In this document: positions 20,035 through 37,572 of the stretch, piece by piece
Layout of the letters: every line of letters begins with the position of its first letter
Numbering within the stretch: the stretch's first letter is position 1
DNA from: Caldicellulosiruptor kronotskyensis 2002
Lineage (GTDB): Bacteria; Bacillota; Thermoanaerobacteria; Caldicellulosiruptorales; Caldicellulosiruptoraceae
Assembly (NCBI RefSeq): GCF_000166775.1
Contig: NC_014720.1
Coordinates: forward strand, 1,854,501 to 1,918,500
Direction of reading: 5' to 3'
DNA: 64,000 nt
Notes under the pieces: model-generated
Told to the model about the DNA's origin: nothing
Databases searched by the model: none
What the model saw: the letters and a program-made list of their open reading frames with translations, nothing else
Program-made: the position numbers and the translations under genes

Positions 20035-20901
20035 TTATACGGAATTTAAATCTGTTATCTGGTAGTAACCACTTTTAATTTCCTGCATACCTTCTTTTCC
20101 TCTTAAATAGCCAATTATAATTTGATTTAATCGGGGATATTCTCCCATATCCTTCTCAGTTCTTACTAAAACCTCACCGTCAAGCAAACCTATAACTTCT
20201 GCATCCTTCAAGTTTGCCATTGAAGAGACTATTCTGTGTTTTTGTTTAGCATCATCAATTGAATCGCAGTATAAAATTGTGCCATTTTTGATTATCGCAA
20301 TATTTGTTGCATACTCTTCAAGTTCAAAAATCTCGTGTGAAGACACAATAACTGCTATATTTTTCTCTTGAACATATTGTTTTATAAGTTGTATCAACTC
20401 AAATCTTACAGTTGGGTCAAGGTTTTGAGTTGGTTCATCTAAAAGCACCAGCTCTGCATTTGTTGCCAATGCTAAGATAACAAGGATAAGTGTTCTTTGT
20501 CCCATTGAAAATTTAGAAAGTTCTTGACTTGTACTAAACCCATAGCTTGAAAGAAAATTTTTGAAAAATAAATCATCCCAATTTGGATACAAGGCTTGAT
20601 ACATCTTATAGTAATCACCTAATGTCAACCTTGAAAAAACTTTTCTGTGCTCAGAAACAAATGCTATGTTCTTCTTTAAAGAAGGCTCAAAAGGCTTGCC
20701 AAAAATCAAAACTTCTCCGGTATCTCTGGAAGCTGCATTTATTATACACTTTAGAGTTGTCGTTTTACCAGCCCCATTTGGTCCAACAAGAGCCAATATC
20801 TCACCTTTTTGAACTGAAAAATTCACGTCGGCTAAAATCTGTTTCCCGCTTATTCTTTTGCTCAAATTTTTGACTTCTAATACTACCATCTCAGTACTCA
20901 C
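20035..20901 (-). CDS. ABC transporter ATP-binding protein (YtrB-like)
   Basis: The 288-residue protein is a single ABC ATPase. Walker A is GPNGAGKTTTLK (about residue 39), the signature region is LSKFSMGQRTLILVILALA, in which the canonical LSGGQ is degenerate (FSMGQ), and Walker B is LVLLDEPTQNLDP, followed by the switch His in VSSHEIFELEEYA. Such proteins pair with small permeases next to YtrA-type GntR regulators and often respond to cell-wall or membrane stress. The likely permease is the 22,026-22,649 gene. The substrate is unknown. The start is GTG at 20901 or ATG at 20889. Confidence 0.88.
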   Translation of the reverse strand: MSTEMVVLEVKNLSKRISGKQILADVNFSVQKGEILALVGPNGAGKTTTLKCIINAASRDTGEVLIFGKPFEPSLKKNIAFVSEHRKVFSRLTLGDYYKMYQALYPNWDDLFFKNFLSSYGFSTSQELSKFSMGQRTLILVILALATNAELVLLDEPTQNLDPTVRFELIQLIKQYVQEKNIAVIVSSHEIFELEEYATNIAIIKNGTILYCDSIDDAKQKHRIVSSMANLKDAEVIGLLDGEVLVRTEKDMGEYPRLNQIIIGYLRGKEGMQEIKSGYYQITDLNSV

Positions 20902-20926
20902 CGCCTTCTCTTTTATTAAGACCTCG

Positions 20927-22021
20927 CTACATACTTCTATTTTTTTGTAATTCTATTGCATTATCAAAAAACTCAACTATTTGCTCCATCATGTCTTGAT
21001 CAATCTCAGACATTAATTTGCGGTTTATACTAGCTTGAAAGTCCTTAAGTATTTTTTTAGGAATTTTTTTGTAGCTGCCATACTTACTTGTTAACTCTTT
21101 AAATTCATTTCTTTTTTGTCGAATATATTTCAAGGCATTGTCTGATAAAAAAATATCATGTCCTTTATTATCAAATAGTTTTAAACTAACATTAGTTTTA
21201 TTTAAATGTTTGCACGCCTCAAAAATACTATTTTCCAATTTCACTGTATCATCATCCTTACTATGTATGACCAACACAGGTACTGAACTTTTCTTTATCC
21301 CATCTATTGCAGATACGTTTGCTAATTTGCCAAACTTTATTTTTTCAAGCAAACTTAAATAAGGCAAAATAACTTTCCCCCATCTTCCATAAGAGTCCAT
21401 TGCAGTTGTTTTTATTATTTCATCCGGGGAATTGAAACCAGCACACGAAACCACACCTGCAATTTTATGAGAATAGGATAAAACAGCACAAACAGCATAA
21501 CCACCCCAACTATGTCCAAAAAGCAATATGGGCATGTTTTTAAATTCATTATTCTTTTCAATAAAACGTAACGCATAATCAAGATCAACAACAGCCTGTG
21601 GAAGCCCAATCATTGAATCCCCTTCACTTTCACCACATCCAGTATTATCAAATCCAAGAACGTAATATCCTTTGTTCGTAAAATAATTTATTTCATCTAA
21701 ATAATTGATATGGGTTCCGCCAAATCCGTGTGATACAACAATTAAACCTTTTTTAGCTTCGATATTATTTTTCTTATAATAAATATAACCTCTTAACATT
21801 TGTCCTGCATTTGATTTGAATTGTACTCTTTTGTAAACTAAATTAGGATACTTTTTCACAAGAGAATACACTTTATCATCTTTGGAGGTACATCTCTTAA
21901 AAGCTTGACTATATAAAACAGTGGTAATTAGTAAACAAATTGAAAAACTTATTAAGATAATAAAAAGTATTGCAGCTATAATCTTGTTTTTATTTTTTTG
22001 AGTCTTTGCTATTAAATTCAT
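20927..22021 (-). CDS. Membrane-anchored alpha/beta hydrolase
   Basis: A 364-residue protein with an N-terminal membrane helix (IIAAILFIILISFSICLLIT) and an alpha/beta-hydrolase domain outside. The nucleophile elbow is FGHSWGGYAV, the oxyanion region is VVSHGFGGTHIN, the acid is in IHSKDDDTVKLE and the base His in NKGHDIFLS. These are the marks of a serine hydrolase (esterase or peptidase type); the substrate cannot be inferred. It lies inside an ABC transporter operon between permease and ATPase genes, an unusual place that suggests a shared role. Its stop codon is TAG. Confidence 0.88.
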   Translation of the reverse strand: MNLIAKTQKNKNKIIAAILFIILISFSICLLITTVLYSQAFKRCTSKDDKVYSLVKKYPNLVYKRVQFKSNAGQMLRGYIYYKKNNIEAKKGLIVVSHGFGGTHINYLDEINYFTNKGYYVLGFDNTGCGESEGDSMIGLPQAVVDLDYALRFIEKNNEFKNMPILLFGHSWGGYAVCAVLSYSHKIAGVVSCAGFNSPDEIIKTTAMDSYGRWGKVILPYLSLLEKIKFGKLANVSAIDGIKKSSVPVLVIHSKDDDTVKLENSIFEACKHLNKTNVSLKLFDNKGHDIFLSDNALKYIRQKRNEFKELTSKYGSYKKIPKKILKDFQASINRKLMSEIDQDMMEQIVEFFDNAIELQKNRSM

Positions 22022-22025
22022 CTTT

Positions 22026-22649
22026 CTATCCCTCCTTTTTTACATATGCAAAATATGCAAAAAAGCAAATCAGAGCAGCATACAAAAAGGCTAAAATCAT
22101 GCTTCCCTGCTTTGTAAAGCTTATTAAACTATATGGATTAAAATCAGCTGCATTCAAATTAGTTGAGCCTAAATCTCCCAGCAAAGCATCTGCAATTGTT
22201 ATTACAATACTCCAAATAAAACCATCATGTCCTAATGTCGTGAATAACATACTTATCCCGTAAATTGCTAAAAGCGCAATGATTGTTTTTAAAATAGCCA
22301 ATAATCCTTCTAAAATGGTCAGGTTATAGTATATTTTATCAATTGCCGATGTTATTGAAATTATAAGAACTAAAAACATTAGATTATACAGGAAAAGCTC
22401 TCTTTTTGAGAACGGCAAAAAATACAAAAGCTCAACATTTTTATTCTTAATATCATTCACAAGCATTGCAGAGCAAAGAAGTATTATGCCAATAACTCTT
22501 ATGGTAAAACTCGGTATAAACAATATTAGCGTGAAAAATAGTATTTGACCTGTTTTTTCTTTTAATTCTTTTCCAATATAAATATCCATTTTTGTTAGAT
22601 TTTCTTCGATGTTAAAATTTAAAATTCTTGAAAATTCAAACCTCCTCAT
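22026..22649 (-). CDS. ABC-type membrane subunit (putative permease)
   Basis: A hydrophobic protein of about 207 residues with five to six predicted membrane segments (for example ILFFTLILFIPSFTIRVIGI and MILAFLYAALICFFAYFAYV). A charged N-terminus precedes the first helix (FEFSRILNFNIEENLTKMDI). No motif identifies a family. The position between a GntR regulator and an ABC ATPase suggests the transporter's permease. I chose the ATG at 22647-22649 after GAGGAGG; it overlaps the 3' end of the regulator gene. Confidence 0.75.
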   Translation of the reverse strand: MRRFEFSRILNFNIEENLTKMDIYIGKELKEKTGQILFFTLILFIPSFTIRVIGIILLCSAMLVNDIKNKNVELLYFLPFSKRELFLYNLMFLVLIISITSAIDKIYYNLTILEGLLAILKTIIALLAIYGISMLFTTLGHDGFIWSIVITIADALLGDLGSTNLNAADFNPYSLISFTKQGSMILAFLYAALICFFAYFAYVKKEG

Positions 22650-23007
22650 TTTTCCACACCTCCTCAAATAAAATCATGGCTGTGTAAAAATCTATTTGAT
22701 GACTTTTAAGTTCCCTAACACACTCTTTTATTATCTCAATTATCTTTTTATCAACATCAATATCCTTCTTCACAAAATACCCTATCCCTTGCTCTGCTTC
22801 AATAAAACCTTCAGCTTTTAGTTTTTCCAGTGCTTTTAAGACAGTGTTTATATTCACATCAAAAATTGCCTGAAGTTCTCTCACAGTTGGAAGCTGTAAA
22901 CCTTGCTGAAGATTTCCAAGTATTATCTCTGATTTAATCATGTTGACAATCTGCACGTATGCAGGCACACCGCTGTGTTTATCAACTTTTCTCAGCATTT
23001 TAATCAT
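22636..23007 (-). CDS. GntR-family transcriptional regulator (YtrA subfamily)
   Basis: A 123-residue regulator with the GntR winged helix (GVPAYVQIVNMIKSEIILGN, then LPTVRELQAIFDVNINTV) and only a short C-terminal helical part. The small size and the ABC transporter neighbours mark the YtrA subfamily. It starts within the stop codon of the upstream gene. The 26-bp palindrome at 24,148-24,173 over the operon promoter is the likely operator, so the operon is probably autoregulated and induced by an unknown signal. Confidence 0.9.
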   Translation of the reverse strand: MIKMLRKVDKHSGVPAYVQIVNMIKSEIILGNLQQGLQLPTVRELQAIFDVNINTVLKALEKLKAEGFIEAEQGIGYFVKKDIDVDKKIIEIIKECVRELKSHQIDFYTAMILFEEVWKNEEV

Positions 23008-24122
23008 CACTCTCTTATAAGTTTTACATAACCTGAAGTTTTAGTTGTAACAGGTGCACTATAAAGGTTATTGATTTTTACAATACCACCTGTTGCTTCA
23101 ATGTTCAAAATGCCCTTTTCATTTTCGCTATTTAAAATATTAATTGATCCATTCAATCCTGTTGCATTAATATCAAACTCCTCAAACCTTGCTTTTGCCC
23201 TGATATTCAATCCTGTTGAATCAATCTCAATTTTATCAAATATCAACTGTGAATTTATATTTGCCCCAGAAGAATTAACCTTCAAATGCTTCCCCTTAAA
23301 ATCAGCTCTCAGCTCAAGCCCTGCACAGTCTAAAGAAATATCATCTGTTGCTTCAATCTGCCCTTGAATAAAGCTGCCAGTTGAATTTACTGTTAGATTT
23401 TTGAACTTCCCATCACCTCTTGTTTTTAGCCCTCTACAGGAAATTTTTACATTTCTCAAAGATTTTGTACCAAGTTTTACTTCATATGTTGTATCAAATT
23501 CTGTATTTCTGTCAAAGACTTTCAAAGTTTTTCCTGAAACTTTTGTTTTGAGCACTGAAGGAAAATAGATGGTATCTTCATCATCAATGAGTTCTAAATC
23601 TATTCCGCCTGAACAGCTAATTACAATTTCATCAAAATTCTTAATTGACATATCCTGGTCTGCAGAATAAGTAATTGAATGATAAACCTCAATAAAGTCG
23701 CTGCTGGTAATCACATCAGAAATTATTTGTGAAATACTTTTTGATAACCTAGAAAACTTAAAATCTTGCTTATCAGAAGAGTAGTAGTGAAGTTGAGATA
23801 TAATTGAACCAACAACAACCAATATGACTAAGATTATAGCAATAACCATTCCCAAAGAAGTTTTCTTTATTGGAAAAATACTAAATAAAAACAAAATGCA
23901 GCTCAATACAAACAAAACCTTTAATGCAGTCCACGGAAAAATCCATGCAAATAAAATTGACAACAGTGATAAAACAAGTCTCATTGTTTGGCTGGTGTGA
24001 AATTTTTTAATCTGAAATATGTTAGAGCTATTTTTGGATATAAGATAGAAAAGCCCAAGTACAATGAAAAAAATGACCACCAGCAAACCAATAAGTCCTA
24101 AAACATTTTGATTAAAATGCAT
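23007..24122 (-). CDS. Membrane protein with DUF4097/DUF2807-like beta-solenoid domain
   Basis: The 371-residue protein begins with four hydrophobic segments (for example VLGLIGLLVVIFFIVLGLFY and MVIAIILVILVVVGSIIS). After residue 120 it becomes a repetitive beta domain with phrases such as KTRGDGKFKNLTVNSTG, ISLDCAGLELRADFKGKHLKV and IEIDSTGLNIRAKARFEEF, a pattern like the adhesin-type DUF4097/DUF2807 repeats. It is the first gene of the regulated ABC operon, after GGAGGG 6 nt from the ATG. Sensing or protecting the envelope is plausible but not shown. Confidence 0.75.
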   Translation of the reverse strand: MHFNQNVLGLIGLLVVIFFIVLGLFYLISKNSSNIFQIKKFHTSQTMRLVLSLLSILFAWIFPWTALKVLFVLSCILFLFSIFPIKKTSLGMVIAIILVILVVVGSIISQLHYYSSDKQDFKFSRLSKSISQIISDVITSSDFIEVYHSITYSADQDMSIKNFDEIVISCSGGIDLELIDDEDTIYFPSVLKTKVSGKTLKVFDRNTEFDTTYEVKLGTKSLRNVKISCRGLKTRGDGKFKNLTVNSTGSFIQGQIEATDDISLDCAGLELRADFKGKHLKVNSSGANINSQLIFDKIEIDSTGLNIRAKARFEEFDINATGLNGSINILNSENEKGILNIEATGGIVKINNLYSAPVTTKTSGYVKLIRE

Positions 24123-24147
24123 AACCTACCCTCCTGTTTGATTTTTA

Positions 24148-24190
24148 TAGTGTTATATAATTATATAACACTAAAATTTGATTCTGTCAA
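24148..24190 (-). promoter_or_regulatory. Operon promoter with a 26-bp palindromic operator
   Basis: On the minus strand TTGACA (complement of 24185-24190), 17 nt, then TATATA (complement of 24162-24167). The -10 lies within a perfect 26-bp palindrome at 24148-24173 with arms TAGTGTTATATAA and its complement. The outer AGTGT/ACACT arms resemble operators of YtrA-type GntR regulators. Confidence 0.85.
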
Positions 24191-24329
24191 CTGTATTTTT
24201 CGATGATTTTTAAAATTTTTAAATTATATATTCCGAGTACTTTTGATATGGATAAACGGAATTCTAAACTAATATTTCTAATAAATATAATTACGATATA
24301 ATGTATTATATGAAATTATTTCTATCCTG

Positions 24330-25263
24330 AGGTTGTTGAATAAAAGAAATAACCATGTTATAGTAAACGTAGCAACAAAAGAAAATACCCCTCTTGTGTT
24401 ATAATTTTAATTTAAGAGAAAATCACAACAAAACACAAGGGGGAAAAATTTCAGAGAATTAAAATATCGAATAAACTAAGACACAGAGTTTAAAAGAGCA
24501 ATAGGTATGGAAGAAAGTCCAAACTATTCATATTTTGCAAAGTTGTCAAGAACAATATAGAAAGAATACATGCAAGATATAAAGGACATAGTAATAGCTG
24601 AAATAAAACCTGATATGAGTATAGCAAAAGTTGACTCGCCGTCGCTGAGAAGTGCCAAAAATGATTTAGAAGCAAAAATATGTATACATATTACAATAGG
24701 ATTTTTCAGGGGATACAAATTACATCTTTTGTGTGCAGGTAAAGAAGAAGTAATACCACTTTTCTGAATTTTAGCAACAGCAAACGAACATGACTCAAGA
24801 CAAAAAGAGCTTTTGTATAGGGCATGGGGCTTGAGCTGTGAGATTGTTTTAGCAGATGCGGGATACGATTGTAGCAGCTGATTTAATATAGCAAATAAGC
24901 TTAAAGTTAAATTTGTTGCTGGGATAAATAAAAGAAACATGAAAAATAAAAACAATGTTAGCAATAGTTTTAGAAGCAAGAACATAAGATTTTTAGAAAC
25001 TGAAGAGGGTAAAAAGCTATACAAGCAGAGAACAAAGATTGAAAGACTATTTAGCAAATTAAAAGGAGAATATAATCCTGAGAATGTGAGGCTCAAGGAA
25101 TTTAGAAATCATAAAAGATTTATTGATTGGATATTAATTACTTTTCTATTTGAGCAACTTTTTAGAAAATTAGAAGGTAAGAAGTTTTCTTTTACTTATG
25201 AATGGAATCAAAAACTTTTGTTTATTTTATGTATTGTTGGTAATATTTATTATTCAACAACCT
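24330..25263 (+). mobile_element. Degenerate insertion sequence with 14-bp terminal inverted repeats
   Basis: The ends are perfect inverted repeats: AGGTTGTTGAATAA at 24330-24343 and its complement at 25250-25263, giving an element of 934 bp. The interior carries remnants of one DDE transposase on the plus strand. Near the left end a hairpin-forming pair (CTTGTGTT at about 24393 and AACACAAG at about 24434) brackets a short AT-rich loop. No target-site duplication is visible. Its right end forms the last codons of the neighbouring minus-strand ORF. Confidence 0.85.
24442..25262 (+). pseudogene. Broken DDE transposase (IS4/IS5-like)
   Basis: Plus-strand translation shows transposase fragments in different frames with several stops. 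One is SRQKELLYRAWGLSCEIVLA followed by DAGYDCSS at 24,798-24,881. Another is an open stretch at 24,939-25,265 with EEGKKLYKQRTKIERLFSKL and NVRLKEFRNHKRF, the C-terminal catalytic region of IS4/IS5-type transposases. The N-terminal part is scrambled by stops near 24,490-24,620. It cannot give a working enzyme. The exact family was not resolved. Confidence 0.8.
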
Positions 25264-25806
25264 AATTGATTGTCCATAATAAATATCTACAACATTTTGT
25301 ACAATAACATTTAACAAACTAATTTTGGTACTATAATCAATTATTCTTATCCCCCAAAATTCAGGACTTATTGCAGTGATTCTTCTGTCTATTAAGTAAT
25401 AATGAATTTTGTTTTCAGGTATATTTCTTTCAAATTCTAACACATCAAAAGTACAAATATTGTCCATTGATTTCTTAATTCTTTTAATTCGTGAACCATA
25501 GACTACTAACAATTTATATTTATTACTATCCACCTTTCTCAGTTTTTCTAATAGTTTCTGGACACGATAGCTTTTATTTTTATCATACCCTAACACTAAC
25601 AACATATTAACCTCATATTCTACAAAACTGTCTCGCCAAATAATTTTTTCTATTTCTTTGTCACTCTCTATCCAACCAATATAATAAGTTTTAACTTCAA
25701 AAGGTATAATAGGATATATATACCACCAAAAAATAAACATACCTACACTGATTGTTAATATTGCCCAACAACCCATCCCTTTTTTGCTTTCACCCTTTTC
25801 CATCAT
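25222..25806 (-). CDS. Hypothetical single-pass membrane protein, copy A
   Basis: I do not recognise the family. The protein has a short charged N-terminus with GMGCW, one membrane helix (AILTISVGMFIFWWYIYPII), then about 150 residues with NKSYRVQKLLEKLRKVDSNK, VVYGSRIKRIKKSMDNICTF and IHYYLIDRRITAISPEFWGI. A near-identical broken copy lies at 28,400-28,896 after the large caspase-like gene. The last 14 or so residues here are encoded by the right end of the insertion sequence, so the native C-terminus is replaced or extended. The short DNA upstream is the decayed 3' end of another caspase-like gene. Confidence 0.6.
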   Translation of the reverse strand: MMEKGESKKGMGCWAILTISVGMFIFWWYIYPIIPFEVKTYYIGWIESDKEIEKIIWRDSFVEYEVNMLLVLGYDKNKSYRVQKLLEKLRKVDSNKYKLLVVYGSRIKRIKKSMDNICTFDVLEFERNIPENKIHYYLIDRRITAISPEFWGIRIIDYSTKISLLNVIVQNVVDIYYGQSIRLLNNKYYQQYIK

Positions 25807-25925
25807 AATTACTTATCACCTCTATCTCTACTAAAAATTTATCACACCAATATAAACATTTCATCCTTCCATTTCTATCTTTAAAATATATGACCTTCCT
25901 AACAGGTAATACTTTTATTCCGAAA
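25285..25925 (-). repeat. Duplicated segment, copy A
   Basis: About 640 bp closely matching 28,376-29,015. It holds the hypothetical membrane protein gene plus, at 25,807-25,925, a remnant of the 3' end of the caspase-like gene. Similarity stops abruptly at the shared ATTCCGAAA. From 25,926 to 26,095 I see no gene. Confidence 0.85.
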
Positions 25926-26095
25926 ACCATAAATAAAACACTTACTAATACCAATAAGTTAAGCTAAATACTTCTTAAAAGCTGAATTAAGTAAAATTTG
26001 AATGTTATTTTTATTTGGTATATTATATCCCCTACCTCTTGACATTCTGCTGTTTGTCTATTATACAAAATTATTTATAGTCTAATACTCAATCT

Positions 26096-28327
26096 TCATC
26101 TGAATTTTATTTGTACCGGAATAGATGAAGAGGAAAGAATCTCTTTGCTAAGATCTCTGTCACATTCAATCCCCCACACCCATACTGTTCCATCTTTTTT
26201 AAGCGCTACTGAATGAGTATCTCCTGCAGCAATTGCCACAACATTGTCAAGCTTTTCTACTTTTAAAGGAACTGTTGAAAATTCTATATTTCTTCTACCA
26301 AGCTGCCCTCTAATGTTTGAACCCCATACCCAAACAGTTCCATCTTTTTTCAGTGCCATTGAATGGTAATCCCCTGCAGCAATTGCTACTACATTGTTTA
26401 GACCTTTCACACGTACAGGAACAAAAGATGTCTCTCTTGTCCCATTCCCAAGCTGACCATAAGCATTATATCCCCAACTCCAAACAGTACCATCCTTTTT
26501 CAAAGCCAAAGAATGATATTTACCAGCCGCTACTTTTACTACTCCACTCAATCCCTTTATTTTAACTGGCTTTTCTGAAAAATTAAGATATTTCTCTTTA
26601 TTATCTAAATTAGTATCACCCCATGACCAAACAGTCCCATCAGTTCTCACAGCCAATGAATGAAAGTAACCTGCTGCAATTGACCTCACATTTTTTATAT
26701 TATCTAAACGTATTAATTTAGTCACAGAACTTACTGAACTGTCGGTAAATTTGCGAAAATAAAAATCATTACCACACCCCCATATGTTCCCATCTTTTCT
26801 TAAAACCAATATGTAATCTAATCCACCAGCTATTTCCGTAATATCGTTTAATTTTCCAATCTTTATTGGTAGTGGAGATAATATATCTTTAGTATTTTTT
26901 TCACTCCACACACTTTCAATAAATCCCCATACCCAAACAGTGCCATCTTTATCTACTGCTAATGAATGTTGAGATCCAGCCTCCACTAACACAGCTTTGT
27001 TTAGTCCCTTTACACACGTAGGAATATACGAAGATTTATAAGTCCCGTTACCAAGCTGACCTTTGTTATTAGCACCCCATGACCAAACTGTTCCATCTCT
27101 TTTTATTGCTAACGTATGAGAACCACCCGCAGCAATTGCTACAACATTGTCAAGCCATTTCACTTTATATGGAAGATTTAAAGAAAAGCTATTATTCTCT
27201 CTTCCCAGCTGACCAAAAGCATTATTCCCCCATGCCCAAATAGTACCATTTTTTGTTAAAGCAACTGAATGCAATCTGCCTGCGGCAACTGCTACAACGT
27301 TCTTTAAACCCTTAACCTGAACAGGCAAAAATGAATGCTCACCAACATTACTACCAAGCACACCATAAGAATTATGTCCCCATACCCATACTGTCCCATC
27401 ATCTTTCAATGCTATTGAATGACGATAACCGGCAGCAATAGCTACAACCTTATTTAACCATCTTATACGTACAGGAATATATGAATTATCTATTTTCCCA
27501 TTTTTCTCAATTATACCTCCACCCCAAATCCAAACAGCGCCATCTTTATTTAGTGCTATAGAATGAAAACCACCTGCTGAGATTGCTATAACATCAGATA
27601 ATCCCTTTACACGGACAGGAACAGAAACAGTATAATCTTCAGTTGGTCTGTTCCCGAGCTCACCATCTTCATTATATCCCCAACTCCAAACAGTACCATC
27701 ACGTTTCAGTGCCAATGAATGATAAAGTCCTGCTGAAACTGCTACTACATCTTTTAACCCTTTCACCTTTACTGGAACAGCTGATGGTTTTAAACTCCCA
27801 ATTCCAAGCTCCCCATGATTGTTTATACCCCATGCCCAAACGCTTCCGTCAGAACCAACAGCCAATGAAAAATCCCACCCAGCTGCAATCGCAACTATAT
27901 TTTTTAGTTCTTTTACCTTCACTGGTGTTGTAAAATCTCTATATACATCGCTTTTTCTCTGTCCATAGTTAGTATGACCCCAAATCCATACACTCCCATC
28001 CTTCTTTAACGCCAAAGAATGAAACGTCCCTGCTGATACTGCCACCACATCCTTGAGCCCCTTAACACGAACAGGAATACACGAATCTTTATATGTGCCA
28101 TTGCCAAGCTGCCCAAAACCATTATATCCCCATGCCCACACTGTTCCATCATCTTTAATTGCCAACGTGTGAAGACTCCCGGCACCTGATGAAATAACCT
28201 TAAAATTTTCTCCCTGCAACTCTTTGCTGTTTTCTTTATTCTTTGAATTTGCATTTGATAAGGTCATACTTAGAAAACTAAAAATTAAAAACAATAATAC
28301 TGCATACTTTATTTTTCTCATTTTCAT
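26096..28327 (-). CDS. Secreted RCC1-repeat beta-propeller protein
   Basis: The 743-residue protein has a signal peptide (KYAVLLFLIFSFLSMTLSNA) and then 14 tandem repeats of about 50 residues, each built as GLxxVVAIAAGxxHSLALKxDGTVWxWGxNxxGQLGxG. This is the RCC1/BNR-type propeller repeat; 14 repeats would make two seven-bladed propellers. Repeats 9 to 11 are the most diverged. Bacterial secreted RCC1 proteins are thought to bind ligands or surfaces; the partner is unknown. It lies between two copies of a membrane-protein locus and next to a large caspase-like secreted protein. The start is one of two ATGs after GAGGTG. Confidence 0.88.
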   Translation of the reverse strand: MKMRKIKYAVLLFLIFSFLSMTLSNANSKNKENSKELQGENFKVISSGAGSLHTLAIKDDGTVWAWGYNGFGQLGNGTYKDSCIPVRVKGLKDVVAVSAGTFHSLALKKDGSVWIWGHTNYGQRKSDVYRDFTTPVKVKELKNIVAIAAGWDFSLAVGSDGSVWAWGINNHGELGIGSLKPSAVPVKVKGLKDVVAVSAGLYHSLALKRDGTVWSWGYNEDGELGNRPTEDYTVSVPVRVKGLSDVIAISAGGFHSIALNKDGAVWIWGGGIIEKNGKIDNSYIPVRIRWLNKVVAIAAGYRHSIALKDDGTVWVWGHNSYGVLGSNVGEHSFLPVQVKGLKNVVAVAAGRLHSVALTKNGTIWAWGNNAFGQLGRENNSFSLNLPYKVKWLDNVVAIAAGGSHTLAIKRDGTVWSWGANNKGQLGNGTYKSSYIPTCVKGLNKAVLVEAGSQHSLAVDKDGTVWVWGFIESVWSEKNTKDILSPLPIKIGKLNDITEIAGGLDYILVLRKDGNIWGCGNDFYFRKFTDSSVSSVTKLIRLDNIKNVRSIAAGYFHSLAVRTDGTVWSWGDTNLDNKEKYLNFSEKPVKIKGLSGVVKVAAGKYHSLALKKDGTVWSWGYNAYGQLGNGTRETSFVPVRVKGLNNVVAIAAGDYHSMALKKDGTVWVWGSNIRGQLGRRNIEFSTVPLKVEKLDNVVAIAAGDTHSVALKKDGTVWVWGIECDRDLSKEILSSSSIPVQIKFR

Positions 28328-28375
28328 TTTGCACCTCTACCAAAATTAATTATAGTTTTACCTTTTTATATTTTA

Positions 28376-29015
28376 TATTACAACATTTTGTATAATAACA
28401 TTCAGCATGCTAATTTGGCACTATAACCAATTATACTTATCTCCAAAGATCAAAATTTGTTGCAGTGATTCTTCTGTCTATTAAGTAATAATGAATTTTG
28501 TTTTCAGGTATATTTCTTTCAAATTCTAACACATCAAAAGTACAAATATTGTCCATTGATTTCTTAATTCTTTTAATCCGTGAACCATGGACTATTGCCA
28601 ATCTATATTTATTACTATCCACCTTTCTCAGTTTTTCTAATAGTTTCTGGATACGATAGCTTTTATCTTTATCATCTCCTAACCTTAATAACATACTAAC
28701 TTCGTCTTCTATAAGCTCGTCTCGCCAAATAATTTTTTCTATTTCTTTGTCACTCTCTATCCAACCAACATAATAAGTTTTAACTTCAAAAGGTATAATA
28801 GGATATATATACCACCAAAAAAATAAACATACCTACACTGATTGTTAATATTGCCCAACAACCCATCCCTTTTTTGCTTTCACTCTTTTCCTTCATAATT
28901 ACCTATCACCTCTATCTCTACTAAAAATTTATCACACTTATATGAACATTTCGTCTTTCCATTTCTATCTTTAAAATATATGACCTTCCCAACAGGTAAT
29001 ACTTTTATTCCGAAA
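28376..29015 (-). repeat. Duplicated segment, copy B
   Basis: This segment matches 25,285-25,925 with scattered substitutions and small indels. It includes the last 40 or so codons of the caspase-like gene and the broken membrane protein gene. Confidence 0.85.
28400..28896 (-). pseudogene. Broken copy B of the hypothetical membrane protein
   Basis: This copy starts at the ATG at 28,894-28,896, overlapping the end of the caspase-like gene by 17 nt, and encodes the same GMGCWAILTISVGMFIF start. An A-run of seven at about 28,816 (six in copy A) shifts the frame in the membrane helix. A second small indel near 28,440 truncates the C-terminus after NFDLWR. The middle part (NKYRLAIVHGSRIKRIKKSM) is still open. 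It is probably inactive unless the run slips. Confidence 0.8.
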
Positions 29016-30907
29016 GGATTATACGAGAGTCCAACCGGCCTTGGAAAATTTTTGTGCCTTTTATAATTCTCTAATTGCTCAAGCTGTTCGTGAAAAGAAC
29101 TCTGGTCTAAAGCAATTCTTGGAAAACATGTGCCCCCGAAAAAACTCAATGAACCATCAAACCCCTCTACTTTCTCAACATTCTGCGTTTCTAAAAATGC
29201 CTGTGCCACGTTACCAAGGGTAACTAATTTTTTATCTTTTTCACTTATTGTTGCTTTTGTGTCTATAGCATCAAGCAAACCATTATTGCAACTTAGCAGT
29301 ACTAGTTCCTTTATTTTCTTTTCCTTTAATTTCCTTATTTCAGTTGCTAAATCATCATGTAGTGTCTTCCCGTCTGGATTGACTGTTAGGTTTTCTTTAT
29401 CTGTTTTATTATCACGATCAACGTCTCTATCATTATTTATCATTATAGCATAATACTTACTGTGAAAAAACAAAATTACGTTGTCAATCCCTTCATCTCT
29501 CATATTATTCCATTCCCTCACAAATACTTCCTCTGTTTCTACTTGGATGGATTTAACCTGTTCTATACTCTTGTATCCATTTTTAAATCTAACCCATTTT
29601 CTCGCAAACTCTGCTTGTGATTTAAAGTTTTTTGGATCATAAAATATATAACTTATTCCCTTTGTGTTATTAAAAATACCCCTGCTAAAATCTTTGCTAA
29701 ACATCAGTGGATCAACTTCTACTGGTCGCCCTGAATATCCGTAATTTACATCAAATCTAATATTATCTATCAACACAGCTGTCGTATATATGGTATCAAC
29801 CGCATCTTTAACGCTAAATTTCAGAACTGCATTCTGCCCTCTGAATGGTGTTACATCAAATTCTGTGGTCTGCCAGTCTGTCATCCATACATCGCCTTTA
29901 TCAAACACTATCTCAGGTGAAACTTTTATTAAATTCCCACCGTTAGTTTCTGTCGCATTAAACATTGAAGCTATTTTATTTATGTCCAAATCTAAAATCT
30001 TAACCTCCTGCCCATTTTCACCCTCTAAGGTTATTGTTACAACAAATGGATCATCGTAGCGTGAACCTATCCATTCTAAAAATTCTTCTGATAAAACATT
30101 CCAATCAAATATTAACTTGTTGGCATATTCAGGTATAAATATTCTTTGCTTTAGCTCACCATGTTCTAACGTATAGCCTAAACCTGTTGAAATAATCCCC
30201 ATCTTGCTTCCATCTGTCGGCTTTACAAAGCCAAGCCCAGTTGTTGCTCTCCCATCTCCGTCCGTTTGCCACCCAATAAGGTCATTTTCAAAACTACCAT
30301 TAATCAATCCATATGGCATCTTCAAATTTGTCTGACCTTTTATCTGAAACATCCCATTATCATTATAATAAGTATCTAAAGTTGGTACATAGGCTTCAAC
30401 TGTACACCTACCATTCAAAATTATCTCTGTAAGTAAATGCACGCTATTTATCACTATACATTCATTCGTTACTTTATCACTATAACCAAAATATGCACAT
30501 GCTCCTCTTTGAGCAAATGCATTCCAAAGTAAATCTGTTGCTGTGCTATAGCAAGAATTATTTACTATTATGCTCTTGGCAAATCTATCAGAAAGATTAT
30601 TTTCAAACCATTTGTTGCTTACTGCATAATAGGTTTCAGAATTTTTATTATCTATATCTGCTATTGTAAATATACCAACTTCATCTTTCTGCTGTTCTAT
30701 TTTGTATTTAATGTTTTCTCCCAATTTTTCTCCTGTCACCAACCACTGACCATTATGACCATGAGTTGCAAATATAATCATACCATATTTTGTAACATCC
30801 CTCAGTGACTCTACATTGGCTTCAGTATCTCTTACTATGTCCAACTTATAACCATACGGCGAAGAATTTACAATCTCTTCAACATATCTTGTCTCGTCGG
30901 CCTCGCC
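28880..30907 (-). CDS. Caspase-like (clan CD) secreted protein, C-terminal segment after an in-frame TAG
   Basis: 676 codons follow a TAG at 30,908-30,910 in the same frame as the two upstream segments. The first internal ATG is at 30,842-30,844. A caspase-like fold is suggested by MIIFATHGHNGQW (catalytic-type His) and SIIVNNSCYSTATDLLW (Cys), followed by ACAYFGYSDKV. A lectin-like beta region follows (NGSFENDLIGWQTDGDG to VLIDNIRFDVNYG). A second, altered His/Cys pair lies near the end (NVILFFHSKYYAIM and ELVLLSCNNGLLD). The family resembles CHAT/C25-type peptidases, but protease activity is an inference. Alone this segment has no signal peptide or ribosome-binding site. Confidence 0.7.
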   Translation of the reverse strand, partial: GEADETRYVEEIVNSSPYGYKLDIVRDTEANVESLRDVTKYGMIIFATHGHNGQWLVTGEKLGENIKYKIEQQKDEVGIFTIADIDNKNSETYYAVSNKWFENNLSDRFAKSIIVNNSCYSTATDLLWNAFAQRGACAYFGYSDKVTNECIVINSVHLLTEIILNGRCTVEAYVPTLDTYYNDNGMFQIKGQTNLKMPYGLINGSFENDLIGWQTDGDGRATTGLGFVKPTDGSKMGIISTGLGYTLEHGELKQRIFIPEYANKLIFDWNVLSEEFLEWIGSRYDDPFVVTITLEGENGQEVKILDLDINKIASMFNATETNGGNLIKVSPEIVFDKGDVWMTDWQTTEFDVTPFRGQNAVLKFSVKDAVDTIYTTAVLIDNIRFDVNYGYSGRPVEVDPLMFSKDFSRGIFNNTKGISYIFYDPKNFKSQAEFARKWVRFKNGYKSIEQVKSIQVETEEVFVREWNNMRDEGIDNVILFFHSKYYAIMINNDRDVDRDNKTDKENLTVNPDGKTLHDDLATEIRKLKEKKIKELVLLSCNNGLLDAIDTKATISEKDKKLVTLGNVAQAFLETQNVEKVEGFDGSLSFFGGTCFPRIALDQSSFHEQLEQLENYKRHKNFPRPVGLSYNPFGIKVLPVGKVIYFKDRNGKTKCSYKCDKFLVEIEVIGNYEGKE

Positions 30908-31306
30908 CTACTTTGTGTCAAACGGTGCCCACAGCAGAATGTCCTTTGATAATGTAAAGTCATAATTAAAATCAATAATTTTACAATCAGATTCTGGTTT
31001 TAAATCTATCTGTTGAAAACTTCCACTACCTCTAACCATTGTCTCAATACTGCTATTTTCTGTTATTAGAACATATAACTTCAAACCGCTCGTCAATGTG
31101 ATTTCTAATGAATCATTAACAACATTTACTTCTTTTATCCTGTCATCCACACTCAGTTCCAGCTTTAGTAGATTTGCTAATTCATTAACGCTTGTGTTAA
31201 CATTGAAAGTAAAATAACTTTGAATATATTCCCTCACGTAGTTATTAATATCAATAAGTGTTTGGAATGCCACATCAGGTAAAGGTTCAATAACTTCTAT
31301 GCTAAA
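30908..31306 (-). CDS. Middle segment of the caspase-like gene, between two in-frame TAG codons
   Basis: 132 codons lie between the TAG at 31,307-31,309 and the TAG at 30,908-30,910, all in the frame of both neighbours. The translation FSIEVIEPLPDVAFQTLI continues the upstream Ig-like protein. The end, DILLWAPFDTK, then TAG, then GEADETRYVEEIV, reads like one continuous lead-in to a caspase-like domain. A GTG at 31,271-31,273 could start a 121-residue product, but no Shine-Dalgarno is evident. I treat it as part of one ancestral gene. Confidence 0.6.
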   Translation of the reverse strand, partial: FSIEVIEPLPDVAFQTLIDINNYVREYIQSYFTFNVNTSVNELANLLKLELSVDDRIKEVNVVNDSLEITLTSGLKLYVLITENSSIETMVRGSGSFQQIDLKPESDCKIIDFNYDFTLSKDILLWAPFDTK

Positions 31307-32944
31307 CTATTTGCTAATTTGAGTTCCATCAGCTCTGTAAACTACAATTTTCAATCTTAGTTTTCCCTGCTGAGTTTCATTAAAGTCAAAAATATTTGTG
31401 TACACTTGGTCAGCTTTGATTTCATCGCCATTTATACTTAAATTGCCATTGTCAAAAAGAAAACCCTTTGATAACCACTCGCCTGAAGCATTCATCATAA
31501 ATAGCTCCACAGGTGTACTGTTTTGTGTTTCGCTTCTTAACTGGTTCTTCTCGTAAAGCACTTTTACGCTTATTCGGTTTTTAACCGGTTGATTTGTTAA
31601 AATAGTTTTATATTGAACAAATATCTCGTTAAGTAACTTTTGCAGAATGATTGTATTCGAATATACATTACCTGCTGTTAAACTTATCTTTTCATAAACA
31701 ACTTGTTTGTAATTATCTTTCCCTATTTTAAAGGTATAATTTCCCTCAGGCAAACTAAAATCAGCAATACCCTGTTCATTAGAATAAAATACTTTACTTG
31801 CATTATCAGCCGCACTATCCAAGGATAAAACGGTTATTTGGGCTCCACTTACAGGTAAATTGTTATTATCCACAATGTATAAATTAATAATTGCTTGATT
31901 CTTCACAAAATTAAGTACTATAGATTTGCTCAAACCCTTCTTTGTGGTTATAGTTAGCGTAATTGATTCATTCATACTATCCGAAATAATAATAGTTGCT
32001 CTTCCATCACTATTGGTCGTAACAGAACTTGGTGCAGTTGCATTGCCTGTAACACTTATTGAACAGATAACATTCGGTACTGGTTTGCCAAACTTGTCCA
32101 CTATCGTAAATGATATTTTATGTTCAATATTGCATTCATATTCATTTCGAATTTGATCAAAAATTATATCTGTTTCTCTGTAAATTAAATCTATATCCTC
32201 TTTGCTACTCTGTACATTTAAAGTACTTCCTCTAAAAATTATTTTATTTGCCAGTAACCTTCCTTTCAAAGTAAATATTCCCGAATTAATAGTAACAGTT
32301 CCTTTAGGCGCATAAATGATACCCTTTATATTTACCTCAGAACCATTAAAGGTAATATTACCTGTTTCAGAACAAATAACACTCCCATCTTTAAAGCCAA
32401 TTTCACTTTTCGCCACATTAATTGAAATATCTTTCGTTGCTATTATATAGTCATTAGTTGTAAATTTCGAACCATTTACAAAAATACTCCCATTAGCAAT
32501 GATAGATTTCTCGAATACTATACTGTTCCCATGGTATTTCTGGTCAGCTTCAAATATCTCAGCATTTTCACTTGCTATTGTTTTAATCTCAGTAGTATAA
32601 TCCGACATTTCAATAATGGGTGCACATTCAATTTCTTTGGTTATTAAAGCTTTTGCATTCTTTGCACTCACTTTACCTGAAGCTTCACATACACCGTCAA
32701 TAACAAGCTCTGAACCTTGATACACAAAGTCCGCATTAGTATGCACATCACCCTTTATGCTGATTCTTGAACCATTCAGTAATAATGCGTTCTCTCGACT
32801 TGCAGAAAACAAAGCATAATCAACAGCTTCCCGTCCAGACATCTGAACTTCTTCATCAGCAGCAAACGTATTGAACGGTAAAAATTGGAGTACCAAAAAC
32901 ATTGCTAAAATCATACTTAAAAACTTCTTATTTCTTGCATTCAT
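31307..32944 (-). CDS. Secreted surface protein, N-terminal segment of the caspase-like gene
   Basis: A 545-residue secreted protein starting at ATG 32,942-32,944, 8 nt after GGAGGAGG (an upstream TTG overlaps that Shine-Dalgarno). It has a signal peptide ending NTFAA, then a repetitive beta region (residues 40-240) with alternating phrases ANGSIFVNGSKFTTNDYII and GNITFNGSEVNIKGIIYAP, like polymer-forming or adhesin beta-solenoids. Next come an Ig-like domain (FTIVDKFGKPVPNVICSIS) and a carboxypeptidase-regulatory-like domain (DNNNLPVSGAQITVLS). It ends at a TAG, and the same frame runs on for 132 and then 676 codons. On its own it would be a surface adhesin-like protein. Confidence 0.75.
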   Translation of the reverse strand: MNARNKKFLSMILAMFLVLQFLPFNTFAADEEVQMSGREAVDYALFSASRENALLLNGSRISIKGDVHTNADFVYQGSELVIDGVCEASGKVSAKNAKALITKEIECAPIIEMSDYTTEIKTIASENAEIFEADQKYHGNSIVFEKSIIANGSIFVNGSKFTTNDYIIATKDISINVAKSEIGFKDGSVICSETGNITFNGSEVNIKGIIYAPKGTVTINSGIFTLKGRLLANKIIFRGSTLNVQSSKEDIDLIYRETDIIFDQIRNEYECNIEHKISFTIVDKFGKPVPNVICSISVTGNATAPSSVTTNSDGRATIIISDSMNESITLTITTKKGLSKSIVLNFVKNQAIINLYIVDNNNLPVSGAQITVLSLDSAADNASKVFYSNEQGIADFSLPEGNYTFKIGKDNYKQVVYEKISLTAGNVYSNTIILQKLLNEIFVQYKTILTNQPVKNRISVKVLYEKNQLRSETQNSTPVELFMMNASGEWLSKGFLFDNGNLSINGDEIKADQVYTNIFDFNETQQGKLRLKIVVYRADGTQISK

Positions 32945-32991
32945 TACACTTTCCTCCTCCAAATTTTAAAATTTAATTTAGCCTTTTGCAG

Positions 32992-33010
32992 AACGCTCAA
33001 TATGAGCGTT
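32992..33010. promoter_or_regulatory. Palindrome upstream of the caspase-like gene
   Basis: AACGCTCA-ATA-TGAGCGTT, 48 nt before the ATG. A shorter form of the same element (ACTCA-ATA-TGAGT) precedes the second caspase-like gene. It could be an operator or an RNA hairpin. From 33,011 to 33,300 I see no gene. Confidence 0.5.
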
Positions 33011-33299
33011 ATCAATCATTTAAAACATCTAAACAGTCTGGTCACTTTCCTCATATTTGTAATATTTTCTTGCTTCCTTGATACATAAACTAAATCTTTT
33101 TATTTGTCCACTTTCTGGATTGAATTTTATGCTAAGATTTTATCAAAACATTTCATAATATGCCAACATCCATCTTTTGTTTTTAACTTTCATTTCACAA
33201 ATTTAGCCGACTCAAACTTCAATTCGCTCATTTATTTATTAAAATTTCTATGCAGTCTATGAAATTGAAAACAAAAAATCAGTCCTCTCAACAGCATTT

Positions 33300-33690
<391 letters not shown>

Positions 33691-33744
33691 TTATCAAAAA
33701 TTACTGTCTTGAGACACCTCTACATAAACAACCAGTCCGAACTT

Positions 33745-34683
33745 TTACTCTATAGCCGGAACAACAGCATCAAATTTTTCTACTTTTCCATCTTCAGTCA
33801 CAGCCTCCCCGGCAAATACCCAAACAGGTTGCAAATATGGCTGCTCTTCAATTGTACCTGCATCTTCCCAGTAAGCAAGAAAAACTTCTTTGATTGTTGC
33901 AGACTTTGCCATAGGATTGATACTATTCGATGATTTTCTATTTTTAACTTTTTCAAAAGCTTTCTCTGCAGGCATTATCTTTACCTTTTTGTATTCTTCA
34001 ACCTCCTTATACCATTTATAAACTTCTACTATCTTTCCATTATCACCTACAACCACTATTATCCTTGAAACACCATACACAGGCTTTCCTTTTATCTCGG
34101 GATAAAAATATACATTCTTGTGATGAACCTTATAATCATTTGTAATTTTATCGCCAGATGAAGAGTCTGTAACTGCACAATAAATAAATCTTTTATCATA
34201 AAGACCATTCTTTTTCAAAAAGTCAAGTGCAATTTTTTTTGCTTCTTCATCAGAAGGTAGATTTTGTGGATCATCATTATCAAGTCCTTTGCTATCTTCA
34301 TAATGCCATCTCCCTGTGTCAATTTCATATTCCAATGCACGATAATACTTTTCATCTATTTTCTCTTTTATCAAATAAGTTCTCCATATAGGTTGATATT
34401 CCATTTCACCTTTTAGTCCAAATATTTTAGCTAAAGATTTAATCTCTATATCTATGTTTTTTGGCTTTATAAATCTGTATACCATAGCTTCAACAGGTAA
34501 ATTGTCAAATTTGGCTGTCACTTTATAGTCTATTTCAGGTATTTCATTCCCTGGCATAGGAATATTAAGCGGCGGTATCCTGTTTGGTCTTATATACAAA
34601 AAATAACCTGCTATAAAAGCAATTATTAGCACTATAAAAGATATTTTTGATATACTATGTATTTTAGCAGTTTTTATCTTCAT
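33745..34683 (-). CDS. Membrane-anchored partner protein of the caspase-like gene
   Basis: A 312-residue protein with a short basic N-terminus, one membrane helix (ISFIVLIIAFIAGYFLYI) and an extracytoplasmic domain of about 270 residues. The outside part has two PepSY/YcdB-like stretches (SDEEAKKIALDFLKKNGLYD and KIMPAEKAFEKVKNRKSS) and a conserved-looking LQPVWVFAGEAVTEDGK. These resemble families that inhibit or chaperone secreted peptidases, but I cannot name the family with certainty. It follows the caspase-like gene by 19 nt after AAAGGAG, so the two are almost surely co-transcribed. Confidence 0.7.
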   Translation of the reverse strand: MKIKTAKIHSISKISFIVLIIAFIAGYFLYIRPNRIPPLNIPMPGNEIPEIDYKVTAKFDNLPVEAMVYRFIKPKNIDIEIKSLAKIFGLKGEMEYQPIWRTYLIKEKIDEKYYRALEYEIDTGRWHYEDSKGLDNDDPQNLPSDEEAKKIALDFLKKNGLYDKRFIYCAVTDSSSGDKITNDYKVHHKNVYFYPEIKGKPVYGVSRIIVVVGDNGKIVEVYKWYKEVEEYKKVKIMPAEKAFEKVKNRKSSNSINPMAKSATIKEVFLAYWEDAGTIEEQPYLQPVWVFAGEAVTEDGKVEKFDAVVPAIE

Positions 34684-34702
34684 TTAGCTCAACTCCTTTC
34701 AT

Positions 34703-35548
34703 TTACCTGATAACAACTCCAGTTGGAGCTATTTTTTCCTCTGCTATTATACCATATCCTTGCTTGTAATTTCTATACCATTCTTTTTCAGGTCGACAAC
34801 CATAAAAACTATAAAGAGTATCATTTGCTGCTAATTTATATCCCATTATACGAACAATACTGCTTTGCCCATCTTGCCTTTGTGGCTGATAAATTTTTGC
34901 AGCTTCCACAAATGCTTTTACAAAGCTATATTTGTATCCCGTTAAAAACTTTACAAAATCAACTGCTTCACGACTATCTAAATACATGGTAGATGCAAAA
35001 CCCATAACAAGTGTTGCGCCCTCAAATGTTTTATAAATATTCTCTAATTTTTCTTGATCCCCGTTGCTATTTAGCCAGTTACATGTATACATTATAACCC
35101 ATTTTAGATTACTGTGCCCAAATCGAACTTCGTTTGTCCTTGCATTTACCTCATCATTATATTCCATTGAACTGTTATGCCAAGTTTCACCTGTACTTCT
35201 TGCAAAAAAGTGAGCAGCATTCTCTTTAGAAAAACACAGTCCATGTCCAGAATAAACTAACAAATCAGCTTGTGATGTAAGCGAAGTATTCTTCAAATAG
35301 GACTCATTCGCTTCACTATTGAGTTTTATAAGATAAGCAGTTACCCATGCATTTCTCCATAAACTATCAGCTAAATTATAAACATAATGAGCACCTGCTC
35401 TATCGCCATATGTGCATGAGCCATTTGGACTACTGTAAGTGCTAACGCCAAGGTAAATACCTTTTAAATTTGCCGAAAAAGCTACATAAAAGTTAAATAT
35501 CAGTATTATAATTAAAGCAAGAGAAATATAAAATTTATTTTTAATCAA
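34703..35548 (-). CDS. Secreted caspase-like protein (DUF6345-like)
   Basis: The 281-residue protein has a signal peptide (ISLALIIILIFNFYVAFSA) and a single domain. The catalytic-type His is in DLLVYSGHGLCF (about residue 102) and the Cys in WVIMYTCNWLNSNGD (about residue 156), each after a hydrophobic beta strand, as in caspase-fold peptidases and the DUF6345 group. Later landmarks are LVMGFASTMYLDS and a C-terminal YGCRPEKEW. The start is a TTG 10 nt after AAGGGGGC. With its membrane partner it forms a two-gene unit lying between the two gltX copies. Substrate and activity are unknown. Confidence 0.7.
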   Translation of the reverse strand: MIKNKFYISLALIIILIFNFYVAFSANLKGIYLGVSTYSSPNGSCTYGDRAGAHYVYNLADSLWRNAWVTAYLIKLNSEANESYLKNTSLTSQADLLVYSGHGLCFSKENAAHFFARSTGETWHNSSMEYNDEVNARTNEVRFGHSNLKWVIMYTCNWLNSNGDQEKLENIYKTFEGATLVMGFASTMYLDSREAVDFVKFLTGYKYSFVKAFVEAAKIYQPQRQDGQSSIVRIMGYKLAANDTLYSFYGCRPEKEWYRNYKQGYGIIAEEKIAPTGVVIR

Positions 35549-36039
35549 TTCTACTTAGCCCCCTTGCTTTTGTTAAATTTTTTATAGTAAAAACTCAATA
35601 TGAGTGTTATTATAAGAACTTTCTAAAAGTTTTCCTTTGTCTATATTCCATTAAAGTAATTTAAGAAGAACAAGGTAACAGTTATTGCTAATAGTTATTA
35701 ATATCAGAATTATCAAAATAAACCTTGTTAGAATAATAAATTTTTAATGTTAATTAATCAACTTTGAGTCCTTTTTGACGGGAAATAGTTTTGAAGTATT
35801 TAAAAGGTGTCATATATACAAACAATCATCAACTCCTTTCATTGGATAAAGTAACTGTAAATAGTTATATCAAAAAAAAACATAATGCAATGGGCAAATT
35901 AGATAAATTTTTTATGTTATAATTGGAAATTTTCATAAATTAAAATTAATTTTTTATTTACAAATCCTAAACAGTTTTTTGCAAATGTAATATATTTTTG
36001 CTCTATCGTGAATTATAAGGTAGATAAAAAGATAAGATA
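35549..36039. other. Intergenic region between the caspase-like gene and gltX
   Basis: About 490 bp, very AT-rich. It holds the palindrome ACTCA-ATA-TGAGT at 35,593-35,605, about 45 nt before the caspase-like start, and runs of A and T. I see no gene or RNA. Confidence 0.6.
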
Positions 36040-36057
36040 CTCTTTCATTAACATTTT

Positions 36058-36068
36058 TATGTTATAAT
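36058..36068 (+). promoter_or_regulatory. gltX promoter (extended -10)
   Basis: TG-T-TATAAT with -10 at 36,063-36,068; no good -35 is visible at 17 nt. The same TGTTATAATACAATCTGT block is kept in the truncated copy at about 33,303. Confidence 0.6.
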
Positions 36069-36129
36069 ACAATCTGTCACAAAACTAACACTGAACCAAA
36101 ATAAAGCTTTAAATGAAAGGAGTAAAAAG

Positions 36130-37572
36130 ATGGTAAGAGTTAGATTTGCACCAAGTCCAACAGGTCAGCTTCACATAGGCGGTGCAAGGACAGCACTTTT
36201 TAACTATCTATTTGCCAAAAAACACAATGGAAAATTTATTTTACGTATAGAAGACACCGACCTTGAAAGGTCAAGAGAAGAGTGGGCAAAAGGTATTATG
36301 AGAAGCTTGAGATGGCTTGGAATTGAATGGGATGAAGGACCTGATGTTGGCGGTGACTTTGGACCGTACTTTCAATCTCAGAGAAAGGAAATCTACCTTG
36401 AATACATTAAAAAGCTTTTAGAAGAAGGAAAGGCTTATTACTGTTTTTGTACACAGGAAGAGATAGAAAGAGAAAGGGAAATTGCAAGGCAGCAAAAAAT
36501 ACCGTACAAGTACAGCAAAAAGTGCAGGAACATCAGTTTAGAAGAAGCAAAAAAGAGAATCAAAAACGGCGAAAAGGCAGTTGTTAGAATAAAAGCACCT
36601 GTGGAAGGAACAACAGTTGTGCATGATATCATACGCGGAGATGTCGAATTTTCAAATGACCAGTTAGATGACTTTATAATCTTAAAGTCTGATGGAAATC
36701 CAACATACAACTTTGTTTGTGTAATTGATGATTATCTTATGAAAATATCGCATGTTATAAGGGCTGAAGAGCATCTTTCGAACACCCCAAAACAGCTAAT
36801 AATATATGAAGCCTTAAATATTCAGCCGCCACAGTTTGCACATGTTCCCATGATTTTAGCACCCGACAGAAGCAAGCTCAGCAAAAGACACGGTGCAACC
36901 TCAGTTGAAGAGTTTTTTGAAAATGGATACTTAAAAGAAGCAATTGTCAATTACCTTTTGCTCCTTGGCTGGTCACCTGGCGAAGACAGAACTATCATAA
37001 GTCTTGACGAAGCAATACAGAAATTTGAACTTGAAAATGTTTCAAAAAATGCAGCTATTTATGATATAAACAAGCTTACTTGGATAAACGGGTACTACCT
37101 CAAAGAAATAGACATTGATGATTTATATGAGAGGATGAAATATTTTTATTCCAAAAATGGTATTGATATATCAAGCTTTGATAAAGAATATGTGAAATCT
37201 GTTTTAAAGCTTGTGCGCGAAAAGGTCAAAACACTTGCTGAAGTAGTTAGTGCAAGCAGTTACTTTTTTGACTCAAATTATGAATATGAACAAAAGGGTG
37301 TGGAAAAATATTTTACGGCTGATAACCTAAAATACCTTCAACTTCTTCTTAATGATTTAAAAAATGTACAACCTTTTTCAGCAGAAGAAATTGAAAAACT
37401 TGTGAGGTCAAAAGCTGAAGAATTTAATACAAAAGCTGCAAATCTTATTCATACAATAAGGATGTGCATAAGCGGAAGAACTGTAACACCTGGCCTTTTC
37501 GAAATGATGGAAGTTCTCGGTAAAGATGAAGTAATAAATAGAATAGAAAAAACACTTAAAATATTTGCGTAA
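36130..37572 (+). CDS. gltX: Glutamyl-tRNA synthetase
   Basis: GltX charges tRNA-Glu (and in organisms without GlnRS also tRNA-Gln). The class I HIGH motif appears as [14 protein letters not shown] at residue 12, and KMSKS as DRSKLSKRHGATS near residue 253. Length is normal at 480. The start follows GGAG by 7 nt. It is the only complete copy here; a truncated, nearly identical 5' copy lies 2.8 kb upstream in the same direction. It ends at a terminator shared with the convergent gal operon. Confidence 0.97.
   Translation: MVRVRFAPSPTGQLHIGGARTALFNYLFAKKHNGKFILRIEDTDLERSREEWAKGIMRSLRWLGIEWDEGPDVGGDFGPYFQSQRKEIYLEYIKKLLEEGKAYYCFCTQEEIEREREIARQQKIPYKYSKKCRNISLEEAKKRIKNGEKAVVRIKAPVEGTTVVHDIIRGDVEFSNDQLDDFIILKSDGNPTYNFVCVIDDYLMKISHVIRAEEHLSNTPKQLIIYEALNIQPPQFAHVPMILAPDRSKLSKRHGATSVEEFFENGYLKEAIVNYLLLLGWSPGEDRTIISLDEAIQKFELENVSKNAAIYDINKLTWINGYYLKEIDIDDLYERMKYFYSKNGIDISSFDKEYVKSVLKLVREKVKTLAEVVSASSYFFDSNYEYEQKGVEKYFTADNLKYLQLLLNDLKNVQPFSAEEIEKLVRSKAEEFNTKAANLIHTIRMCISGRTVTPGLFEMMEVLGKDEVINRIEKTLKIFA

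What the first reader, a model, noticed from the sequence alone, without database searches (positions are those of the whole stretch)
28880..32944. One 1,355-codon secreted caspase-like gene with two in-frame TAG codons
Three open segments (31,307-32,944; 30,911-31,306; 28,880-30,907) are in exactly the same frame, separated only by TAG at 31,307-31,309 and TAG at 30,908-30,910. Domain logic runs across both: signal peptide, beta-solenoid, Ig-like domains, then a caspase-like lead-in (LLWAPFDTK-TAG-GEADETRYVEE) and the His/Cys region. Either two recent nonsense mutations hit an otherwise intact gene, or TAG is read through to make a short adhesin and a long protease-like form from one mRNA. 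Both stops are amber and no other stop or frameshift occurs in 4 kb, which is notable. A nearby gene (20,927-22,021) ends normally with TAG, so general reassignment is unlikely.
Basis: partly seen in the sequence, partly recalled or inferred. Interest (0 to 1): 0.75.

Follow-up and report, generated by a model that had tools for sequence, protein, structure and literature searches.

The report
Secreted caspase-like gene, now broken
A 1,354-residue secreted protein gene with a caspase-like protease domain, probably a competition toxin, is still whole in one close relative but has been broken in this bacterium by two point mutations that each made a stop codon; it is an ordinary decaying gene, not a case of stop codons being read through.

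Summary
One minus-strand reading frame (window 32944-28880) is interrupted only by TAG at codons 546 and 679. It is one gene: a same-genus genome (G007) carries a collinear intact copy of 1,354 residues, 99.3% identical with no indels, holding Glu and Trp codons at the two sites. Fifteen distant homologues read without a stop across the sites they align to.

The readthrough idea is not supported. The stops are absent from every other copy, replace two different residues, and are about what 28 neutral substitutions would give (expected 0.9-1.4 stops). Three other genus members carry a wrecked copy: a shared 1,642-bp deletion plus frameshift(s). This genome also changed HG to HS in a second caspase-like motif. 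Release factor 1 is present; no PylS and no CUA tRNA were found.

The ancestral protein was a secreted, multi-domain surface protein with an internal clan CD (CHAT/separase-like) domain. AlphaFold pLDDT is 87, and Foldseek matches SAVED-CHAT at probability 1.00. Its C-terminal module sits behind RHS repeats in another Firmicute, suggesting a polymorphic-toxin-like origin. Verdict: recent pseudogene, low interest.

The parts
28880..32944 (-). Interrupted gene: secreted multi-domain protein, 1,354 codons, two in-frame TAG
   Evidence: intact collinear ortholog L011:6338-10402 in G007
31307..31309 (-). Premature TAG 1, codon 546; Glu codon in the intact relative, mixed residues in distant homologues
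30908..30910 (-). Premature TAG 2, codon 679; Trp codon in the intact relative, mostly Phe, Leu or Trp in distant homologues
31904..32122 (-). Big_1 Ig-like domain (PF02369)
   Evidence: E 5.4e-13
31643..31882 (-). CarboxypepD_reg domain (PF13620)
   Evidence: E 8.8e-13
31280..31627 (-). Third beta-rich (Ig-like) region, spans TAG 1; shared with distant homologues
   Evidence: alignment; no Pfam hit
30335..30943 (-). Internal clan CD (CHAT/separase-like) domain, spans TAG 2; putative His 728 (30761-30763) and Cys 798 (30551-30553)
29750..30307 (-). Region shared with all full-length homologues; in two of them it scores as 'choice-of-anchor L'
29078..29653 (-). C-terminal module with a second HG...SC motif; homologous to a domain C-terminal to RHS repeats in G213; HG is HS here (codon 1162, 29459-29461)
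28443..28890 (-). Frameshifted copy of the small single-TM partner gene, overlapping the 3' end of the main gene
25222..25806 (-). Intact copy of the small single-TM partner gene (possible immunity protein, unproven), behind a leftover 3' tail of the main gene (25796-25945)

Best explanation
This is one gene that has recently become a pseudogene. The ancestral product was a Sec-exported surface or secreted protein: signal peptide, beta-rich and Ig-like stalk, an internal clan CD cysteine peptidase domain, a further beta-rich domain, and a C-terminal module that looks like a polymorphic-toxin tip. By analogy with known polymorphic toxins, the internal peptidase would have cut off the C-terminal module outside the cell (inferred, not shown). 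In this genome two independent single-base substitutions made TAG stops at codons 546 and 679. Translation should end at residue 545, before the peptidase, leaving at most a secreted fragment with no catalytic part. The locus is decaying across the genus: three other species carry a large deletion plus frameshift(s).
For: Intact, gap-free ortholog in G007 with 28 differences in 4,068 nt and Glu/Trp codons at the two sites. Fifteen distant homologues in Firmicutes, Cloacimonadota, Bacteroidota and Hydrogenedentes have no stop within the aligned ORF. G004, G008 and G011 share a 1,642-bp deletion and a frameshift at nt 608; G011 has one more at nt 2737. Two stops among 28 substitutions fit neutral expectation (0.9-1.4 expected, P(>=2) 0.24-0.40). 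Gene dN/dS is 0.86, against 0.46 pooled for neighbours (not significant, P 0.24). Where outgroups allow polarising, all 8 changes on this genome's lineage are non-synonymous, against 4 of 8 on G007's (P 0.08). One of them turns the HG of the C-terminal motif, Gly in G007, G011 and G213, into HS. The peptidase fold is confident.
Against: No reads were available, so base-calling errors at the two sites cannot be formally excluded. The selection statistics are weak because counts are small. The N-terminal fragment keeps its start, ribosome-binding site and signal peptide and may still be made. No proteomic data.
Confidence: 0.93

Rival explanations
1. Programmed or selected TAG readthrough makes a short adhesin and a long protease form from one mRNA.
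For: Both stops are TAG, the frame is kept, and there is no other lesion in 4 kb.
Against: The stops are private to this genome and replace two different residues. Release factor 1 is present, no PylS passes the cut-off although the Methanosarcina control does, and no CUA tRNA was found. TAG is an ordinary terminator in this genome. Relatives are losing the gene altogether. The second motif is altered here.
Confidence: 0.03
2. Sequencing or assembly errors: the gene is intact in the organism.
For: Single-base differences only; raw reads not available here.
Against: The assembly is a single 2.84-Mb contig. The other 26 substitutions look like real divergence and include further decay-like changes. 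Two independent errors would both have to make stops.
Confidence: 0.04
3. The truncated N-terminal product (545 residues) is a retained functional secreted adhesin, with the rest discarded.
For: Start, Shine-Dalgarno and signal peptide are intact; domains before the stop are mostly complete.
Against: In three relatives the N-terminal half is itself frameshifted at nt 608, and the polarised changes in the N-terminal part of this lineage (codons 31, 52, 230, 319) are all non-synonymous.
Confidence: 0.1

Closest known systems
Clan CD (caspase-like) cysteine peptidases, CHAT/separase branch
   Same: Predicted fold matches SAVED-CHAT (8tl0), separase and Csx29/TPR-CHAT, most at Foldseek probability 0.9-1.0; invariant HG and Cys in all 15 family sequences.
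   Different: No Pfam or solved-structure sequence match. It sits in an exported multi-domain protein, not in an intracellular defence complex.
Polymorphic toxins with internal caspase-like releasing peptidase (PMC3482391)
   Same: Exported protein, internal caspase-like domain upstream of a distinct C-terminal module; that module also occurs behind RHS repeats in another Firmicute.
   Different: Toxic activity and immunity are untested; the small partner gene has no detectable similarity to the one beside the RHS protein. Distant homologues lack the C-terminal module.
Ordinary bacterial nonsense pseudogenes
   Same: Private stops, relatives with intact or differently broken copies, relaxed substitution pattern.
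   Different: Nothing distinctive beyond two stops of the same kind.

Membership tests
Clan CD / CHAT-type peptidase domain | Caspase-like alpha/beta fold | tested here: met
   pLDDT 86.9, Foldseek 8tl0_C E 4.2e-05 probability 1.00, separase and Csx29 among the next
Clan CD / CHAT-type peptidase domain | Catalytic His-Gly and Cys dyad | tested here: met
   H728-G729 and C798 invariant in 15 sequences
Clan CD / CHAT-type peptidase domain | Proteolytic activity | not testable with these tools
   No assay
Polymorphic toxin system | C-terminal module shared with unrelated N-terminal architectures | tested here: met
   One case: RHS protein in G213, 37% identity, E 4e-30
Polymorphic toxin system | Cognate immunity gene immediately downstream | tested here: inconclusive
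   Small single-TM gene overlaps the 3' end and is duplicated downstream; no similarity to the neighbour of the RHS protein
Polymorphic toxin system | Toxicity of the C-terminal module | not testable with these tools
   No assay
Functional stop-codon readthrough | In-frame stop conserved among orthologues | tested here: not met
   Sense codons in G007 and the aligned distant homologues; region deleted in three others
Amber reassignment / pyrrolysine system | PylS and CUA tRNA | tested here: not met
   No PylS over cut-off with positive control ringing; 7 pattern hits hold only a tRNA-Arg(TCT); a pattern search, not a full tRNA census
Bacterial pseudogene | Disabling lesions absent from intact orthologue | tested here: met
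   Two private TAG plus HG to HS

The most novel reading that the evidence does not exclude
The two amber codons are suppressed at a useful level, so that both a short secreted stalk and a full caspase-like protein are made, in a bacterium with no known amber suppressor.
Probability: 0.02. Interest if true: 0.65.

Novelty: new member of a known kind. Interest (0 to 1): 0.14.

Why it matters
It closes a tempting readthrough lead. It also uncovers a small family of exported proteins with a CHAT/separase-like domain, spread over several phyla and without a Pfam model, with an intact copy available for study in a close relative. It shows a toxin-like locus being lost in different ways within one thermophilic genus.

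Tried and rejected
Peptidase_C14, Pfam and PDB sequence searches do not recognise the peptidase domain. A family accession guessed from memory for a pyrrolysine gene was wrong; TIGR02367 was then used. The first genome-collection scan found nothing; an alignment query found 12 loci. A structure prediction with a 3-sequence alignment failed (pLDDT 46); 15 sequences gave pLDDT 87. Internal restart after the stops was considered; no convincing Shine-Dalgarno is seen by eye in the sequence printed. General TAG reassignment was rejected.

Full report
OBSERVATION. The frame at window 32944-28880 (minus strand) holds 1,354 codons broken only by TAG at codon 546 (31307-31309) and codon 679 (30908-30910); it ends with TGA at 28880-28882. 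The ATG at 32944 has a strong GGAGGAGG just upstream.

ONE GENE. The window lies in a single 2,843,785-base contig; the size fits Caldicellulosiruptor kronotskyensis (my recall, not tested). Another genome of the genus, G007 (2.92 Mb contig, size of C. bescii by recall), carries the same gene as one 1,361-codon open frame. Over 4,068 bases there are 28 differences and no indel. At codons 546 and 679 it has Glu and Trp codons. Two different residues at the two sites argue against any single meaning of TAG.

DISTANT HOMOLOGUES. Three genomes of the phylum and twelve loci from the species collection encode relatives of the middle part. All fifteen align within one uninterrupted ORF; residues at the two sites vary (Lys, Glu, Leu, Val, Ile, Asn at the first; Phe, Leu, Trp, Asp at the second). 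In the two homologues with the weakest match, L034 and L056, the alignment around the first site is uncertain.

DECAY. Three other genus genomes (G004, G008, G011) share a deletion of gene bases 998-2639, which removes both sites, and a 1-base deletion at nt 608; G011 has another at nt 2737. The remaining seven genus genomes have no copy. Between this genome and G007 the gene has 6 synonymous, 20 missense and 2 nonsense differences, dN/dS 0.86 against 0.46 pooled for neighbours (P 0.24). Using the deleted copies as outgroups, 8 of 8 changes on this lineage are non-synonymous and 4 of 8 on G007's (P 0.08). These tests are weak individually but agree. Under neutral mutation 28 changes would give 0.9-1.4 stops; two are unremarkable, and both being amber has probability about 0.10-0.14.

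NO READTHROUGH MACHINERY. Release factor 1 is present. PylS is absent at the curated cut-off while Methanosarcina rings. A pattern for CUA tRNAs found seven sites, of which only one holds a tRNA, and that is tRNA-Arg(TCT). TAG ends 4 of 43 larger minus-strand ORFs in the window.

WHAT THE PROTEIN WAS. The N-terminal part has Big_1 and CarboxypepD_reg domains. The middle domain (residues about 668-870) folds with pLDDT 87 and matches SAVED-CHAT, separase and Csx29 structures, with invariant His-Gly and Cys: a clan CD cysteine peptidase fold, unrecognised by Pfam or PDB sequence searches. A following region is shared by full-length homologues and scores as choice-of-anchor L in two of them. The last 290 residues are absent from the distant homologues, but about 200 of them resemble a domain C-terminal to RHS repeats in another Firmicute. 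This second HG...SC motif reads HS here and HG in G007, G011 and G213. Zhang et al. (PMC3482391) describe internal caspase-like domains as releasing peptidases and C-terminal ones as toxins in polymorphic toxins; the layout here fits, but toxicity, self-cleavage and immunity are inferred only.

PARTNER GENE. A small single-TM gene overlaps the 3' end of the main gene in frameshifted form (28443-28890), and an intact copy (25222-25806) lies behind a leftover 3' tail. It could be an immunity gene; it shows no detectable similarity to the gene beside the RHS protein.

CONCLUSION. A recently inactivated gene. It is ordinary as a finding, with a modest by-product: a distinct family of exported CHAT/separase-like proteins. 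The main remaining uncertainty is the absence of reads and of protein data.

Noticed in passing
window 26096-28327, repeats 25283-25925 and 28375-29015: An RCC1-repeat protein gene is flanked by about 640-bp direct repeats (about 92% identical); G008 has a single repeat copy and lacks the gene, suggesting gain or loss by recombination.
   Followed up: partly
window 34703-35548: Neighbouring exported DUF6345 protein (E 1.3e-21) with its own HG...C motif, possibly another caspase-like protein.
   Followed up: no
window 20035-36579: This stretch is mostly 92-99% identical among several species whose flanking DNA, where compared, is only 79-88% identical, as if exchanged between species.
   Followed up: no
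L033, L035, L045-L056: A family of exported multi-domain proteins with a CHAT/separase-like domain in Paenibacillus, Ammoniphilus, Halanaerobiaceae, Cloacimonadota, Bacteroidota and Hydrogenedentes, without a Pfam model for that domain.
   Followed up: partly
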